64,000 nucleotides of DNA from Bugulina stolonifera (lineage: Eukaryota > Bryozoa > Gymnolaemata > Cheilostomatida > Bugulidae). The position numbers were made by a program, and so were the translations under genes. Each line of letters opens with the position of its first letter. Position 1 is the stretch's first letter. A model generated the notes under the pieces. That model saw only the letters and a program-made list of their open reading frames with translations, made no database searches and was not told the origin of the DNA. Shown here one piece after another: positions 48,990 to 61,600 of this stretch. Location of the stretch: NCBI GenBank assembly GCA_935421135.1, contig OW285195.1, positions 12,368,391 through 12,432,390 of the forward strand, read 5' to 3'.

Positions 48990-49667
48990 GCTCAAAGAGA
49001 AGTTCAACACATAGTGGGATTAGTACAGCAGCACCACATAGCAGGACTAGTAGAGCAACACCATATAGCGGGACTAGTACAGCAGCATTACATAGTAGGA
49101 CCAGTACAGCAGCACCATATAGCAGGACCAGTACAGTAGCACCATATAGCAGGACCAGTACAGTAGCACCATATAGCAGGACCAGTAAAGTAGCACTGCA
49201 TAGTAGGACCAGTAGAGCAGCACTACATAGTAGGACCAGTACAGTAGCACTACATAGTAGGACCAGTACAGTAGCACCATATAGCAGGACCAGTAAAGTA
49301 GCACTGCATAGTAGGACCAGTAGAGCAGCACCACATAGCAGGACTAGTAGAGCAACACCATATAGCGGGACTAGTACAGCAGCATTACATAGTAGGACCA
49401 GTACAGCAGCACCATATAGCAGGACCAGTAAAGTAGCACTGCATAGTAGGACCAGTAGAGCAGCACTACATAGTAGGACCAGTACAGTAGCACTACATAG
49501 TAGGACCAGTACAGTAGCACCATATAGCAGGACCAGTACAGTAGCACCATATAGCGGTACTAGTACAGCAGCACCACATAGCAGGACCAGTAAAGTAGCA
49601 CTGCATAGTAGGACCAGTACAGCAGCACTACATAGTAGGACCAGTACAGCAACACCATAGAGCGGGA
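48990..49667. repeat. 27-bp minisatellite with 297-bp higher-order units
   Basis: About 25 units of 27 bases built on AGCACCATATAGCAGGACCA with GTACAGT. Unit variants recur in fixed order: the variant series starting CACCACATAGCAGG at 49032 appears again at 49329, exactly 297 bases (11 units) later. This is higher-order structure, made by duplication of a multi-unit block. Because 27 is a multiple of three, a 239-codon frame stays open on the minus strand. Confidence 0.95.
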
Positions 49668-49969
49668 CCAAAGAAGCAATGGTCAAGTTGAGAAAGATAT
49701 CGATACATGTACAAGAGACAAACCGCTAGTTTTATTGTAGCAGACTAGCTGCTCACCCAACATCAGCTATCTTTTCACGAGATGGTCTTTTTACTGCAAA
49801 AGGCTGAATAAACAAGGATGAGCAATGAAATTTTCAATTTGACCTTTATAACAATATAATGTGCTATAATATGGCTTGAATAATATACTAACTTCTAAAA
49901 TATGAATGATAATTATTACTTTATATCGAGACCTGCTGGATAATATGACAACCCCAAATAAATCTAGAA

Positions 49970-50616: not shown

Positions 50617-50765
50617 TACATACAATACAATACAATACAATACAATACAATACAATACAATACAATACAATACAATACAATACAATACAATACAATACAA
50701 TACAATACAATACAATACAATACAATACAATACAATACATACAATACAATACATACATACATACA
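50617..50765. repeat. (ATACA)n microsatellite
   Basis: About 24 to 26 uninterrupted pentamers of ATACA are followed by mixed CATA/ATACA units. A pentamer keeps all frames open on both strands, so the open frames here are artefacts. Confidence 0.97.
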
Positions 50766-52798: not shown

Positions 52799-55700
52799 TC
52801 AGATGCCATTCTGTGGAATAAAATATCACACAATAACATCCATAATCTAATTGGGTATTATTGTATAAATCATGAAATAATTTGATGAATGATAAATACC
52901 TTGTAAAAAAGATCACATTATAAAAAAATTTTTCTGCAAAGTATCAGAGCACTTCTAGTCCTACTAAAAGGCTTTAACTTATGTTACACCAAATCAGTGA
53001 TTAGGTCTTTGCATAGATGCATATCATTTGACAATAAAATTGAGTTTTTAGCAGACGATTATCTTTTGACTGAACTGGTAAGTAAAATGAACTGCTATAT
53101 TAGCAGGAAATATCTGTATCATCCAGGTATTTAGCAGTGCATGTATGTTACATGAGTACATATGACTAGGAAACTAACCTTAGCTTTATATGCCAGAAAA
53201 ACATCATTCCCAACCAAATGATGCTCGGGTTCCCATGTGTGATGTCTCTTGTTAGGCCAACCCTTCCACTTGACTTTGTACTGGTAGCTGCCATCTTTAT
53301 TCTGTAGCACAAGATACACCACATTTCTTATTTATACAATCCATGAACTATTAATAGGATAAACCTAAATAGGCTAAGTGTCCTAATTTGTACAATGAAG
53401 TGCAGACGACTCCAAAGCTGTGACCAAACACAACATTGGTTATGGGATTTTGCCAGTTGGACCACCACTATTAGACCTGGAGTTGTTGTCACTTTCTATG
53501 AAAGAATACAGGATCAGCTGCATGAAGATATTTTTACTGCTGCTGGCCAGTACACTTTTAAAAATATTCTTCTATTTTATCCTGTACTATACTATAACAG
53601 TGCAGCCTATCTATGGTGCTAAGTTTAAATACAGAAATGGGGAGTGCTCATTTTAAACACTAGCTAATACATTGTTGACTTGCTGACAGGCAAAGAGAAA
53701 ACAACTCCCATCAGAGTAAATCTAAATAAATAATTCCATTCACTTCCACCAGGCACTCTCCAATAATTAGATACACTACAAAGGTGTCATCCCCCTACAT
53801 CTACTAGTTTCCGCTCATTTATGAAAATTTAATATAGAAATTCAGCTTTTAATCGATGACACACTTTTTAGTAAAGTTTTCTCGAACTTGGAACAGATAG
53901 GGAGTGACTACAGGGGAATTATCTGGGTAACACAAAGTTGGGAAAAGTTGCTTGACATTGGGTAGCGGGATAGTGGTCAGACAAAGTGACAGGTAAATAA
54001 ACAGACTAGGAGAGGAAAATTTCTTCCTACCATCAATAGCTTATGGCGACCATACAACGAATCGCTATTAGAGACATACCTTTTGGTGCATGAGAATGGC
54101 GACAGGTATACCTTCCATAGTCAAATCGGAATTTTCTTCTTTGACTGTAACTAGACCATAAAACATGTATTTGTGATTTTACCTGCAGTTTATCGCATAA
54201 CACGAGCAATAAATAAAGTGAGAATATTTATTTTCGAACCTTGAGCTAGCACTCACAAGATTTTTTGCTATGAGGAACCAAAACAAATTATATGCATGTA
54301 AAGTCAATCACATGAACCAAAGTGCAGGAATCATAGGAGAGAATATTATAATGGACTAGAACTTACGCTTTCTCTTCCTTGGTCGGCCTCTGCGACGGCG
54401 AGTTAAAGTAGGGGGCACAGGTGGTAACGCCATCGAGGTCATCGGAGAAGGTAGAGAAGTTGATGCGACGGAGCTGGGTATCACACTGGAAGTTACAGAG
54501 GCTGTGGACACAGCAGAGGCTGATAAAGGCACTGAGGGTGTAAGGGGTGGAGATAGAGACCGACACATAGTGTATTGAGCTGAAACCTGCGGACAGACAA
54601 CGTATTCAGTCGAGAGCGGTGGGCATATGATTGGAGATATTGGCATAGCCCAACTAATAATAGGTGGGACATATACCGAAGGTGAAGTTACAGCTCCAAA
54701 CGATGTCAGTACAGATGAATTGGGATAACAGCCAGAGTCAGCAAGTGAAGTTGGCAAAGGGCCATTAATAACTGGGTGGGAAGTTGTTTCCGCGACCAGT
54801 GGCTGGGGGAGATTTGAGGAGACTGTTGCAGTAGGAGGAGAATGAGCAAGTGCGGACTTTTGCCCAGGCTTAGGCTGTTTAGAGGGAATGGCTGGTGCTG
54901 GTAAAGTAGTACTTAGGTCAGATGGGGGTTGGTATTTTAAAGGAGTGGAGGGTAGTGGTGATGAGCTAATAAAAGGGACAAAATCTGGTACTAAAGTTGT
55001 GCTGGATGTGCAGAGGGATTGCTGGCTAACCGAGGGAACAGGCAGAGTCAATGGTGTGATCGATGGAACCGACATAGTCGGGGCCAGAAGAGTGACTGAA
55101 GAAGCTGACAAGCTTCTGGTCGATGAGGTGATTGATGAAGCAGGCGAAGTCAGGATCTGGGTGGAGGTTGATGAAACAGATAAGGTTGGGCTGAGGGGAG
55201 TGGCGCACGAGTTAGCCTGCCAATTGGGCAGGCATGATGTAGAAACGGCAGGAGAGTACCTGCCAGAAGTCATAGAGACAGAGCTTATTTGAGAAGGAAG
55301 AAACTGACTCGTTGGTATGCTCGAGGAAGCCGATTTAGGAGGACAGATGACAAGATGAACAGCAGAAGGAGCCCGATTCGCAGAAAGGACAGGTAGTGAA
55401 GAACAGACAGTTGTGCCAATTGAGGTTGTTGGCAGAGTGTTAACCAAGGTAGACGGTGGTGGACAGTTTGAAGGAGGGAATGCAGGTGGGCGAATAATAA
55501 CATGTAAAGAACCGGGCTGTGGGATAACAGAAATAATAGGGGAGGAGGAAATTTTAGATGATATCTCCTGGCCCATATGTGTATTTGATGGTAACTGTGA
55601 GACGGTAGAAGTAGGACTGCAAGTTGGTTGGCAGATACCACTTGTAGCGGGCACAAGGTCTGAGGGTGTCGGTTGAAAGTTAGTGATCATAGTAGAACTG

Positions 55701-58286
55701 GATAAAACTGGTGGTTGTGTACTGTGCATGAAGGGAGCTGAAACGGACATGGGAGCAGCAGCCTCAGCTGTTCCAACTGTAGGAACGTTGGTGAGGTCTA
55801 GGGGGTCAATAGGAGCAATGGAAGCAACAGAAGTGCTGGATAAAACTGGTGACTGTGTGCCATAGGAAACTGGAGCCGAGAGAAATGTGGGAACAGCAGA
55901 TACAACTGTTCCAACTGCAGGAAGTTTAGTCTGGTCAAGTATGCAAGTTGAAACGGTAGGATCAACTTGAAGACTTCCAGGAGTAGTATATGGGACTGGC
56001 CCTCCTTCAGAGAATCTAGGGGAGGACAAACTACATATTGGTCTAGTGTACAATGCTGAAGCACCCAGAGAAGTAGTTGGAGCAGGTGGTGAAGTCGTCC
56101 AACTGGTCAAGGGAGTAGTGGAGGTTTCCATTGTATTAGAAACAGTAGATGATTGTAAGGAATGGATTGAAGGATCAGGAAGTGGGCTAGTCGATGGTGG
56201 TTTGAGTTGGGCTGTGGTATGAGGAGACTCGGATTGCGTGCTGGAGGGGACTGAACGAGTCTGACATGAGCAACTAGACTTGACAGAGGAAGATGCTGAT
56301 ACTTTTCCCACTTTTCGTTTGTCTTCTAGAAACAAAATTTAACTTCAATTGCATTATACCTCATATACATACATGCATGTAATACAAATAGAAAGTAAAG
56401 CTTGATATAATTATGAAGCCATATTGACTGCAAGTACGCTTATGTAGTAGCCTATTTATGCTTAATCACAACCTGGATAAATGGTGTTACATTCTTGTAC
56501 TGTCTATGAGTAAGTTAAGGTCCAATGGTAATTTTATTAAAGGATATACTGCTGTGGAAAACAAGAATTCTTACGTTTTTCTTTCAGCAAATCAATAATT
56601 GAAGTCATATGACGATTCAGTTCGTCGTCTTGAGTTACTCCTTCTGTTACTTTAGTTACACGTCCATCGCGTATTGCAACCATGGCAACTTTAAAACCAG
56701 CACCGTTTGCAAAAGCTGCCTAAAATGAACACAAGGTAGCAAATAAAAATAAAAGATGGCCTACAAGAAAGAATGGTGTGACAATTTATGCCAGTTACAG
56801 CAAGTAAAACAATCAGCAAGCTTTGATTTGGAAAAAGCCATTTGACTCAAATGTTTCACTAGTAGCAGATAACTTACTAGTTCCTTGAGGCGTTGGACAA
56901 TGTAACAGGGACCTCTTTTGATCGATTTTCCCCTTTCTTTACTTTTTAGCAGACGGTCAGCTTTATACTTCTTAGTATCAATGACCCCTTCTGAAATACA
57001 TGCAAGGTCTTGAATTTCCATGAAAAATTTCAAATAGCAAAACACCAATGGAAACACACATGCTTCAAAGAGTAATAAATACAATGGACCCGTAGAAATA
57101 TGGAGTCCTTTCATTTAGCTACCATGACAGTGCCGACGTACATCCTCAACATCATAATGCCGTGTAACAATGACCAAATAAGGCTCACAGTGATCAGCAA
57201 TGCAATTAGCGTATCCCTAAGGTAGTACCAAAGTTGGTTTCGAAATACTGGAGTCTGCTCTAAAATATTGTCAGAGCTAAAAGATATTGTGAGCTCTGAG
57301 ATAAATTTAAGGAATCGATAGCACCATGTGTCCCTGATAATGATAGCTTATTCCACACAAGGGAACTTACCACATCTGCGACATTTCTTCTGATTAACCC
57401 GCACCTTGAAGCCGCATGTCGGACAGGGCTTTGTGAAAACTACATAATATACAAAGAAATGGTGCATAAAATGATAGTGAATAGATGCTTAGATTGCTCA
57501 AGAGGCAGACTCACCATCTCACATGTGAACGGAAACTACTCATAGAAAAATGGAATAAAATAATTAGTTTTAAGCTAGAAATACAGAGAGTGTTGCTGGG
57601 CAGGCAAGTTTGACATTAGTAAATCCCACTGAACCCAACCAATGCCTATTCGGCAGTTAGATAATACTGAATATTTTAAGGAATCAAAAAAACAGTTGAC
57701 TACACATAAAGGGCTACCGAAAACATTAGGATTATTTGTTGAAGAGCAAATTTCATTAATAAATTTTATCTACTTACTACAATCCGAACATCTCTTGAGA
57801 GGCTTCCCTGTTGGTCTCAGTTGAACGACTGGTTTGGAGCATGTAGTACATGCTAACTGGATTGTGGGAGCTATCATGAAATAGAAAATATTTGTAAATA
57901 AATACATTCAGAACATAGTTAATTTGGTATAAATTACCATAGAAATGAAGTGTGCATGTGCAAAAAGGTAAACAAAAAACAATTCAAGGCAAAATTCGGA
58001 GAAAAACAATTCCAATTTATGTCGGTCTATAACTTGACCAAATGACGGAAACCACAGAGTACCATAGGCTTCCAGATAGCAACATATTATTCCAGACAAC
58101 ACTATTGGATGGTCTACCAGGACAATGTATAGGTTATGCTTTATAGTTAGACCGAGGCTAAAGTCTGATTGTGTAGCCTACAACAAGATTCAGTCCTGGA
58201 TATATAGTAGGCCTGCTTAGTCACGCTCGCTCTTCCGTAAATGTGATTGCAATGATAACATAAAGCTACTTACCGTGAGCCTCCAT
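52799..58286 (-). CDS. zinc-ribbon / Ser-Thr-Pro-rich / AT-hook / chromodomain protein, about 890 aa
   Basis: Minus-strand exons: 58274-58286 (MEAH), 57778-57870, 57371-57439, 57123-57216, 56878-56990, 56575-56719, 54367-56325, 54080-54150, 53179-53301 and 52799-52810 (ends NGI, TGA). Domains in order: a zinc ribbon CX2C-X16-CX2C (CTTC...CSDC), a second CX2C-X10-CX2C (CPTC...CRRC), a Cys/His segment (CIADHC...RRHCH), a basic-hydrophobic segment (KSIKRGPCYIVQRLKELAAF then GFKVAMVAIRDGRVTKV), a 653-codon Ser/Thr/Pro-rich exon, an AT-hook (RRGRPRKRKRK) and a chromodomain (VAILMHQK, YKVKWKGWPNKRHHTWEPE). The chromodomain retains KWKGW and TWEPE, so methyl-lysine binding in the nucleus is likely. 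All junctions are in phase except 57371/57216, where phase 1 meets an exon needing phase 0; a small exon may be missing there, or the exon is alternative. The family is not recognised; a lineage-specific chromatin regulator is my inference. Confidence 0.7.
55683..56010 (-). repeat. internal duplication of about 45 codons in the Ser/Thr/Pro-rich exon
   Basis: Protein segments LPAVGTVVSAVPTFLSAPVS..TQSPVLSS and VPTVGTAEAAAPMSVSAPFM..TQPPVLSS align along their length, so part of this exon grew by tandem duplication. Confidence 0.7.
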
Positions 58287-59097
58287 TAGTATTAATACAC
58301 TATTATACACGGGCGATATTCTGGTCAACTCTGCTGTTATTCTGCAGCTACCTGGTGCACAACCCTGTTGGTGCCTCTAACCACTCCTGATCTAAATTAA
58401 CACAGAATCATATAGGCCTATACCAAAGGGTGATGATTTATATCTAAGTATGCATAGATGTGAATAGATTCCAATAGGCGTAGGTAACATACATGCAAAA
58501 ACACATCGTGCTAGACGAGCAAGGCAAAAGCAGATTGTGTTAGATGTATACAGGTGCCTTGAAGCCTTTGATTCAAACCCTGGTGGAGAATGGGTTACTA
58601 TCAGTTGTGGAGATGCCATCATCGACCTACTTATAAGCAGGATGGTGTGGTGGCTAACTTGACGTTCACAGGTTCAAGTCCCACACATTTCTGACGTAGA
58701 AGGTCAGATAAGCCCTTCCACTTAGAGAAAATGTGATAACTTATCAGTGGCAGAATGCACAACAGCAACCAAAAATGGTGATATAATAATAGATAATGAC
58801 GAATAAGTTCCTTCCAACAACAATGTTATTATAGACCAAAGGGTATCAGTAGGGTATGCATTACCAAACTCAATTGAAAACCATTGCCACTTGCTTTAGA
58901 TTCAAAGATTCATTTAATTATAATAACTATCATTATAGATAGACCTATAGATCCAACTGCAAATACCGCGCATCATTAGGCCTGTGTACCTACGATTATA
59001 TTGTGGTGATACGGATATTTCTGAACTCACATTGTGTAAACATGATTTAACTTAAAAATTGAAAGCTAAAAGAATTATAATATTAGTATTACAATCA
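58287..59097. other. upstream region of the chromodomain gene
   Basis: The promoter of the minus-strand chromodomain gene should lie just above 58286. A pol III B-box-like GGTTCAAGTCC at 58671-58681 with a TGGTGTGGTGGC word 30 bases before it could be a SINE relic, but the spacing is too short for a clear call. No gene is seen. Confidence 0.35.
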
Positions 59098-59733
59098 AAA
59101 TAAAACTATAGTTAAAGTAGAAAGTTTCAAATACCTGGGTTGTCTAATACAAAGTGATGGGAAATGTAATAGAGAAGTGAAGAAGAAAGTGCAAGCTGAG
59201 TGGAATTCTTGGAGGAAAATCTCAGGAGTATTGTGTGATAGAAGAATAGCGCCGAAACTCAAAGGAAAGATTGACCAAATTGCGGTGAGACCAGCTACGA
59301 TGTATGGATTAGAAACGCTGGCATCCACCAAGAGGCATGCAGGTAGGGGAGTTGGAAACAGCAGAAATAAGCATGGTACGTTTTGCACTGGGAGTGAATA
59401 GATTGGATAAAATTAGAAATGAAAGGATTTCAGAAAAAGTACGAGAGGCGAGACAACGGTGGTTTGGTAATGTGTTGAGGAAAGAGGAGAATTATCCACA
59501 TTGTAGGAAAGAAAATGCTTAAATTGGAAATACCAGGGAGAAGACGCAGGGGTAGACTGGGAAGAAGACACAGGGGTAGACCAGGAAGAAGACACAGGGG
59601 TAGACCAGGGAGAAGACGCAGGGGTAGACTGGGAAGAAGGTATATGGATGTGTTAAAAGGCGACATGAAAGCAGCAGGAGTGACCATGGAAATGGCAGAA
59701 GACTGGAATGAATGGAAGAGTAGGATCCAGTGA
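59098..59733 (+). pseudogene. non-LTR retrotransposon reverse-transcriptase C-terminal fragment, frameshifted
   Basis: Frames in succession encode FKYLGCLIQSDGKCNREVKK..SGVLCDRRIAPKLKGKI..VRPATMYGLET, then LGVNRLDKIRNERISEKVRE..RWFGNVLRKEENY, then PGRRRRGR..MDVLKGDMKAAGV..WKSRIQ. This series is the well-known C-terminal end of LINE endonuclease/reverse-transcriptase ORFs. At least two frameshifts (near 59340 and near 59512) break it, and the catalytic palm with its Asp pair is missing, so the copy is 5'-truncated and dead. Element ends are not defined. Confidence 0.85.
59533..59645 (+). repeat. 24-bp tandem repeat within the LINE fragment
   Basis: Four to five units of GGAAGAAGACACAGGGGTAG plus a four-base variable end encode RGRPGRRH-like octads. 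LINE tails of this type normally have one short Arg-rich RRRGRP stretch here; this copy has expanded it as a minisatellite. Confidence 0.85.
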
Positions 59734-60798: not shown

Positions 60799-61600
60799 TT
60801 ATAGTCCTTGGTAAAAACTATTGAGATACCGGTTGCTGTTTGCCCCTACTGACCGGGGGAGCCACAAGGACTGGGAGGGGATCTGTACCGTTTCCACTGT
60901 TGGCTGGGCCAGTAGATCATCATATGCCTCGCTGAGAGCAGGGTGTTGCTCTTCCTTTTCCAGAATCCGCAGTAGAAGTGCTACCCTGTGATTCTTTCTT
61001 CTCTGGTCTAGCGGTTGTAGCTCAAGCTTGATCATGGCTGCCTCAACATCTCCTCGACCTTTGATGTTACAAATAAACCGTACAGCTGTGACGTGTATCT
61101 CTTCAAGGTCAGTTATATCTTTCTTACTCGATGGATCCCATGCGGCGCTGGCGTACTTCAGGTGAGGTAAACACAGGGCTTTGTAGGCAACGAGTTTTGC
61201 GCGTTCAGGGGCCCAGTATAGTGCACGCTTTATCAGACCCAGTTGTCTCCTAGCATCTAGCACCTTCTTTGCAATGTGGCTGTCAAACCTGCAGTCTTAT
61301 TGCAGTATCACACCCAGGTATTTAGTCGAATCAACATGGTCCAGGACTGATCCATTCCTTGTACTCCGGTGTATTTCCAGTAGAGTTGAAGCTTATGATC
61401 TTGCTTTTGGATATGTTAAAGGACATGCCTTATTTGTCTGACCAGGCGCTAAGTGAATCTAGGTTTTTCTGAAAACTCTGACAGTCATCAACTGTGCATA
61501 TTTCCTGGTAAACGAGAGTGTCATCTGAAAACAGAGCCCATGAGCAGTCAGGCAGATCGTTTATGAAGATTAGAAATAGAATCGGTTGATTGATAGACGA
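60799..61600 (-). pseudogene. non-LTR retrotransposon (jockey/CR1/L2-type) reverse-transcriptase fragment, broken
   Basis: On the minus strand it reads ILFLIFINDLPDCSWALFSDD (near 61590-61510), then DSLSAWSD, an in-frame stop, MSFNISKSKIISF, further stops/frameshifts, then an intact 154-codon stretch with LDARRQLGLIKRAL, LVAYKALCLPHLKYASAAWD, LEEIHVTAVRFICNIKGR and a C-terminal LPRSVGANSNRYLNSFY. These are the palm (FADD-type box, here FSDD) and thumb of a LINE reverse transcriptase. Sequence homologous to the fingers stops abruptly near 61600, indicating 5' truncation. Dead copy. Confidence 0.88.

What the first reader, a model, noticed from the sequence alone, without database searches (positions are those of the whole stretch)
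52799..58286. A possibly undescribed chromatin protein: two zinc ribbons, AT-hook and C-terminal chromodomain in one chain
Seen: CX2C-X16-CX2C and CX2C-X10-CX2C modules, a 653-codon Ser/Thr/Pro-rich exon, a canonical GRP AT-hook and a chromodomain with KWKGW..TWEPE, in ten exons. Known: chromodomains with these residues bind methyl-lysine and AT-hooks bind the minor groove. Inference: a chromatin reader that bridges DNA and histone tails by a long disordered linker. I know no family with this order of domains.
Basis: partly seen in the sequence, partly recalled or inferred. Interest (0 to 1): 0.75.

Follow-up and report, generated by a model that had tools for sequence, protein, structure and literature searches.

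The report
Unfamiliar chromodomain gene family in animal
The gene looks real: it joins two small zinc-binding modules, an unrecognised domain, a long floppy stretch, a DNA-gripping motif and a histone-reader-type domain, and three sister loci in the same animal genome keep the same order, so it belongs to a small chromatin-protein family that we could not match to a named one and whose role is untested.

Summary
On the minus strand, 58286-52799, nine exons (not ten) join through GT-AG sites into one frame of 865 residues: two C4 zinc-ribbon-like modules, a basic domain with no Pfam match above cut-off, a 653-codon Ser/Pro/Thr-rich exon, an AT-hook and a C-terminal chromodomain (Pfam 1.9e-11). 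Three other loci of the same genome (C1:25.85, C9:0.105, C5:0.245 Mb) carry all seven recognisable exon types in the same order; in the three loci modelled, six introns agree in phase, which speaks for one gene. Seven further places hold fragments, two of them tentative. This looks like a small birth-and-death gene family. Two corrections: the AT-hook lies about 13 residues before the chromodomain, so the long linker separates the zinc/core module from an AT-hook-chromodomain unit; and the focal chromodomain lacks the first aromatic of the methyl-lysine cage (Gly811), which two paralogs keep, so methyl-lysine reading by this gene is doubtful. Nothing matching the N-terminal module appeared in Pfam above cut-off, PDB, or three searches of 5.8 billion predicted proteins, but no eukaryotic proteome collection was on hand, so novelty is provisional. 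A MADS-box idea was tested and not supported.

The parts
58274..58286 (-). exon 1, start codon (MEAH..)
   Evidence: donor GTAAG, phase 1
57778..57870 (-). exon 2, first zinc-ribbon-like module CTTC-X16-CSDC
   Evidence: four cysteines invariant in three members
57371..57439 (-). exon 3, second zinc-ribbon-like module CPTC-X10-CRRC
   Evidence: three of four cysteines invariant; weak profile match to ribosomal L40e, E 0.015
56878..56990 (-). exon 4, core domain part A, basic, predicted helical
   Evidence: single-sequence AlphaFold2 of this exon alone: two helices, pLDDT 62.8
56575..56719 (-). exon 5, core domain part B, AAxAxGA motif, predicted two strands and a helix
   Evidence: single-sequence AlphaFold2 of this exon alone, pLDDT 72.5
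54367..56325 (-). exon 6, 653-codon Ser/Pro/Thr-rich linker ending in the AT-hook
54368..54400 (-). AT-hook RRRRGRPRKRK (residues 787-797)
   Evidence: Pfam's AT_hook not listed at E<=10
54080..54150 (-). exon 7, chromodomain first strand (..MEGIPVAILMHQK)
53179..53301 (-). exon 8, rest of chromodomain (KVKWKGW..TWEPE..)
52799..52810 (-). exon 9, NGI and stop codon
52543..52548 (-). possible poly(A) signal ATTAAA, 251 nt after the stop
   Evidence: may be chance

Best explanation
A single gene encoding an 865-residue, probably nuclear, chromatin-associated adaptor. Its AT-hook and adjacent C-terminal chromodomain probably act as one nucleosome-binding unit (minor-groove contact beside a histone-tail groove). 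The N-terminal double zinc ribbon plus core domain probably binds a partner protein or nucleic acid, tethered by a roughly 650-residue, probably disordered linker. It belongs to a small family in this genome with gains and losses. Shown: sequence-level gene structure, domain content, family, past protein-level constraint. Inferred: expression, nuclear location, DNA contact, partner binding. Methyl-lysine reading is likelier for the C1 and C9 paralogs, whose aromatic cage is complete, than for this gene.
For: Frame runs through eight canonical introns. Chromo E 1.9e-11, 3.1e-9 and 1.6e-7 in two paralogs; nearest solved chains are CBX7, then CDYL2, Polycomb, CBX2. Exon order: 7 of 7 exon types in each of C1, C9:105k and C5:245k (for C1 and C9 the queries came from those loci, C5 is the independent case). 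Intron phases 1,1,0,1,1,0 agree in focal, C1 and C9 models; the following phase-0 intron agrees in focal and C9, in C1 as a donor only. N-terminal modules score 23.6-40.5 standard deviations above 500 shuffles. Third codon positions differ at 0.68-0.73 against 0.41-0.47 at positions 1+2. AT-hooks next to reader domains add DNA contact in CBX proteins and BRG1 (PMC6222470, passages).
Against: No expression data; splice sites chosen by eye. Gly at the first cage position (Pfam alignment). The youngest pair (C9:105k, C5:245k) shows 9 nonsynonymous and 2 synonymous changes on 435 and 120 sites of seven exon pieces, no sign of constraint, and C5 has lost a zinc cysteine. The focal chromodomain scores higher against two other chromodomains of the genome (L004 36.2, L003 29.6 bits) than against its own family (25.8-28.1 bits), so it may have been exchanged or evolved at another rate. 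Zinc ribbons below Pfam cut-offs. AT-hook not shared by the modelled paralogs.
Confidence: 0.6

Rival explanations
1. The focal chromodomain no longer reads methyl-lysine; the AT-hook-chromodomain unit binds DNA or RNA only, and histone reading is left to paralogs.
For: Gly811 at the first cage position, while C9 has Tyr-Trp-Tyr and C1 Tyr-Trp-Phe (sequences; readers typically use 3 or 4 aromatics, PMC13068663, passages). GRP hook in the focal gene and not in the C1 and C9 models.
Against: W833, W836 and TWEPE are kept; the alignment of the short exon 7 part is uncertain (Leu817 is the alternative), and the first strand of chromodomains can order on peptide binding (recalled).
Confidence: 0.4
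2. A family of decaying genes: the focal locus is an accidental survivor without function.
For: Seven fragment places, two tentative; no constraint visible between the C5 and C9 copies.
Against: Focal frame open over 2.6 kb of coding sequence; third positions diverge more than positions 1+2 in all three pairs; 28 of 54 residues identical in focal and C1 use different codons.
Confidence: 0.12
3. Two adjacent genes, one with zinc ribbons and one with the chromodomain.
For: No transcript data; exon 6 is long and low in complexity.
Against: Same exon order at four loci including the focal one, matching phases in the three modelled, frame continuous across every junction.
Confidence: 0.04
4. The chromodomain, or the whole gene, derives from mobile elements: the genome holds many integrase-type frames with a chromodomain.
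For: By my count about 128 of the 150 rows sit in open frames of 339-395 aa. The C1 chromodomain scores slightly higher against the element copy L007 (28.1 bits) than against the focal one (25.8 bits), and the focal one scores 25.0 against L007.
Against: The focal chromodomain scores best against the non-element-like L004 (61% over 23 residues, 36.2 bits); the element copies read (L005-L008) lack the TWEPE motif; the family has introns and few copies. Only five other chromodomains of the genome were compared.
Confidence: 0.08

Closest known systems
Polycomb/CBX proteins (CBX2, CBX7)
   Same: Chromodomain is nearest to CBX7 in PDB (2.8e-9); CBX2 has an extended AT-hook just C-terminal to its chromodomain (PMC6222470, passages).
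   Different: There the chromodomain is N-terminal (recalled) with the hook behind it; here it is C-terminal with the hook in front. Zinc ribbons and core domain are not part of CBX proteins (recalled). No CBX-specific Pfam domain listed at E<=10.
HP1 family
   Same: Chromodomain; gene gain and loss resembles that described for Drosophila HP1 genes (PMC3380853, abstract).
   Different: No chromoshadow domain listed at E<=10; different N-terminus.
CDY/CDYL proteins
   Same: Chromodomain similarity (CDYL2 5.3e-8).
   Different: No crotonase domain; chromodomain C-terminal instead of N-terminal (recalled).
Double zinc ribbons and the ribosomal L40e ribbon
   Same: Spacing C-X2-C-X10-C-X2-C; weak profile match to L40e E 0.015; Pfam DZR E 0.012-0.83 for focal and C1 pieces.
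   Different: Below every Pfam cut-off; different protein context.

Membership tests
Chromodomain superfamily (Pfam Chromo) | Score above Pfam cut-off 25.1 bits | tested here: met
   44.2 bits focal; 37 and 31.5 bits in C1 and C9
Methyl-lysine-reading chromodomain | Three-aromatic cage | tested here: not met
   Focal G811-W833-W836, counted from the Pfam alignment that starts at A815 = profile position 5. C1 and C9 have all three aromatics. Binding itself not testable here
HP1 family | Chromoshadow domain | tested here: not met
   Only Chromo and Zn_ribbon_3 listed at E<=10 for the whole protein
CBX/Polycomb | N-terminal chromodomain and C-terminal box (recalled) | tested here: not met
   Chromodomain exon ends three residues before the stop; no such Pfam row
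CHD remodellers | Tandem chromodomains plus SNF2 helicase (recalled) | tested here: not met
C4 zinc ribbon | Two CX2C knuckles per module, conserved | tested here: inconclusive
   Spacing and conservation met: 7 of 8 Cys invariant in three members. Pfam cut-offs not reached; C5 copy lost one Cys
Zinc binding | Metal bound | not testable with these tools
   needs purified protein
AT-hook proteins | GRP core with basic flanks | tested here: met
   RRRRGRPRKRK; no Pfam AT_hook row at E<=10; DNA binding not testable here
MADS box | Profile similarity to SRF/MEF2 | tested here: not met
   hhalign score 6.7; at least 15 of 40 column shuffles of the MADS alignment scored higher (9.6-14.2); SRF-TF over the genome did not list the family

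The most novel reading that the evidence does not exclude
A previously undescribed, lineage-restricted, fast-turnover family of chromodomain proteins defined by a new N-terminal module (double zinc ribbon plus a new small alpha-beta domain), possibly germline or heterochromatin factors that turn over as Drosophila HP1 genes do, with one member that traded methyl-lysine reading for AT-hook DNA binding.
Probability: 0.3. Interest if true: 0.6.

Novelty: new variant of a known kind. Interest (0 to 1): 0.4.

Why it matters
If the family is expressed and functional, it adds an unnamed N-terminal domain to the modules joined to chromodomains, and it offers paralogs in one genome with and without a complete methyl-lysine cage and with and without an AT-hook: a ready comparison of histone-based and DNA-based targeting.

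Tried and rejected
MADS-box reading of exons 4-5 (basic start, helix, two strands, helix): not supported. The genome's own MEF2 and SRF plus MEF2A as a three-sequence alignment scored 6.7 against the family core, and at least 15 of 40 column shuffles scored higher (sources). SRF-TF searched over the genome found MEF2 and SRF exons and not this family. The family alignment is shallow (Neff 1.7), so a remote link is not excluded.

Relatives outside this genome: three protein searches. One viral-contig scan: 7 pattern matches, none a relative. The genome-contig collection was not scanned. None of these is a eukaryotic proteome collection, so the negatives are weak.

Papers: four searches aimed at this architecture listed nothing that describes it, judged from titles and abstract starts only. 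Searches were for background.

Rows dropped: tblastn rows above about E 1e-4 were taken as chance, apart from L023 ch3 (0.008), which lies in order behind a better row. Over the whole genome the fragments at C4:7.22 and C3:3.97 Mb score only E 0.07 and 0.05, hence tentative. A core-like stretch at L073:9536 (E 0.016) was read and no gene was evident. A plasmid search with the neighbouring LINE-like fragment found nothing and says nothing.

No fold search was made from such small models.

Full report
What is there. Splice sites were picked by eye to keep the frame; no transcript was available. The longest open frame in the region is 660 codons, against a maximum of 227 in 300 single-base shuffles. 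Exon 6 is 48.9% G+C in a 36.1% window, with C at 52% of second codon positions, as a Ser/Pro/Thr-rich coding exon would show.

Domain tests. For the whole protein Pfam lists at E<=10 only Chromo (1.9e-11, residues 815-854) and Zn_ribbon_3 (1.2). For the N-terminal piece it gives Zn_ribbon_3 0.016, DZR 0.47 and DZR_2 0.9; for the core alone RED_C at 0.13, all below cut-off. The C1 core gives nothing and the C9 core UQCC3 0.026 and Acetyltransf_3 0.14, below cut-off. Nearest solved chromodomains are CBX7 (2.8e-9), CDYL2, Polycomb and CBX2 among 47 distinct sequences at E<=0.001. The focal N-terminus alone matches no PDB sequence at E<=10; a profile of three members lists ten, best ribosomal L40e's zinc ribbon at E 0.015 over the second module.

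The family. Searches of the window's own genome (235 Mb, 27 contigs) with core or N-terminal queries found further loci. Three have all seven recognisable exon types in the same order: C1:25.845-25.850 Mb (L021), C9:0.103-0.107 Mb (L048) and C5:0.244-0.248 Mb (L075) (the C1 and C9 queries came from those loci themselves, so for these two the call only restates the gene models). Models for C1 and C9:105k give intron phases 1,1,0,1,1,0, equal to the focal gene; the next intron, phase 0, agrees in focal and C9 and, as a donor whose exon was not located, in C1. C1 and C9 have one more intron, phase 2, inside the chromodomain, which the focal gene lacks. The first and last exons of C1 were not located. 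Both paralogs have a low-complexity linker exon (396 and 447 nt) and a chromodomain above Pfam's cut-off. Seven of eight zinc cysteines are invariant across three members; the eighth is kept in focal and C1 and shifted in C9. Pairwise N-terminal scores lie 40.5, 23.6 and 24.5 standard deviations above 500 shuffles. Fragments lie at C2:3.31 Mb (two), C2:9.22, C3:4.78 and C11:5.86 Mb, and tentatively at C3:3.97 and C4:7.22 Mb; those at C2:9.22 and C11 contain stops in the matched stretch.

Selection. Among focal, C1 and C9, third codon positions differ at 0.68-0.73 and positions 1+2 at 0.41-0.47; 28 of 54 residues identical in focal and C1 use different codons. So the protein was held while silent sites drifted. 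Against this, the young pair C9:105k and C5:245k differs, over seven exon pieces with linker and tail left out, by 9 nonsynonymous and 2 synonymous changes (435 and 120 sites), including loss of a zinc cysteine in C5; that pair is not visibly constrained.

The chromodomain's origin. The focal chromodomain scores 36.2 bits against another chromodomain of the genome (L004) and 29.6 against L003, but 25.8-28.1 against its own family and 25.0 against an element copy (L007); C1 and C9 score 55 bits with each other, and C1 scores 28.1 with L007 (five non-family chromodomains compared). It may have been exchanged, or C1 and C9 may have diverged faster. The shared phase-0 intron at the same place favours common descent.

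Mechanism. The hook ends at residue 797 and the chromodomain profile starts at G811, so they probably act as one nucleosome-binding unit, as hooks beside reader domains do in CBX proteins and BRG1 (PMC6222470, passages). The roughly 650-residue linker separates this unit from the zinc-ribbon/core module, whose ligand is unknown. Methyl-lysine readers typically use three or four aromatics (PMC13068663, passages). C9 has EYFV..W..Y and C1 MYHV..W..F; the focal gene has Gly811 (or Leu817 if exon 7 is aligned by the shared PV motif), W833, W836. I read this as loss or weakening of methyl-lysine binding in the focal protein, perhaps offset by its AT-hook. This is inference.

Core domain. Exon 5 alone is predicted as two strands and a helix (pLDDT 72.5), exon 4 alone as two helices (pLDDT 62.8); both are single-sequence models of fragments. 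The topology recalled MADS boxes, but profile comparison gave no support.

Organism. Not named. It has MEF2 and SRF, 72 nuclear-receptor zinc-finger matches and 90 homeodomain matches, exon by exon, which fits a bilaterian animal (recalled: sponges have very few nuclear receptors).

Novelty. In Pfam, PDB, three protein searches and four paper searches nothing with this order appeared. None of these covers eukaryotic proteomes properly, so I call it a new variant of a known kind: a chromodomain protein with an unfamiliar partner module.

Noticed in passing
G000 genome-wide, e.g. L007, L008: By my count about 128 of the 150 rows of the chromodomain search lie in open frames of 339-395 aa with near-equal scores; two read look like integrases with a C-terminal chromodomain (Polinton/Maverick-type by recall).
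   Followed up: partly
59087-59733 +: Fragments that look like a non-LTR retrotransposon reverse transcriptase (by recall); the tail holds a 24-nt tandem repeat (59532-59639) coding repeated RRxRGRPG, AT-hook-like motifs.
   Followed up: partly
60799-61296 -: Open frame of 165 aa that looks like a second reverse-transcriptase piece (by recall).
   Followed up: no
49008-49670: 27-nt minisatellite, 24.6 copies, open in frames on both strands.
   Followed up: no
50620-50765: ATACA array, 30 copies.
   Followed up: no
G000:C2:20.84-20.88 Mb and C3:20.34-20.41 Mb: Runs of neighbouring homeodomain matches and of nuclear-receptor zinc-finger matches respectively, suggesting local expansions.
   Followed up: no
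G000:C5:243-251 kb and C9:101-109 kb: Duplicated segment near two contig starts: 95.6% over 2.5 kb, 98.1% over 1.9 kb, 91% over 0.57 kb, carrying two copies of the family.
   Followed up: partly
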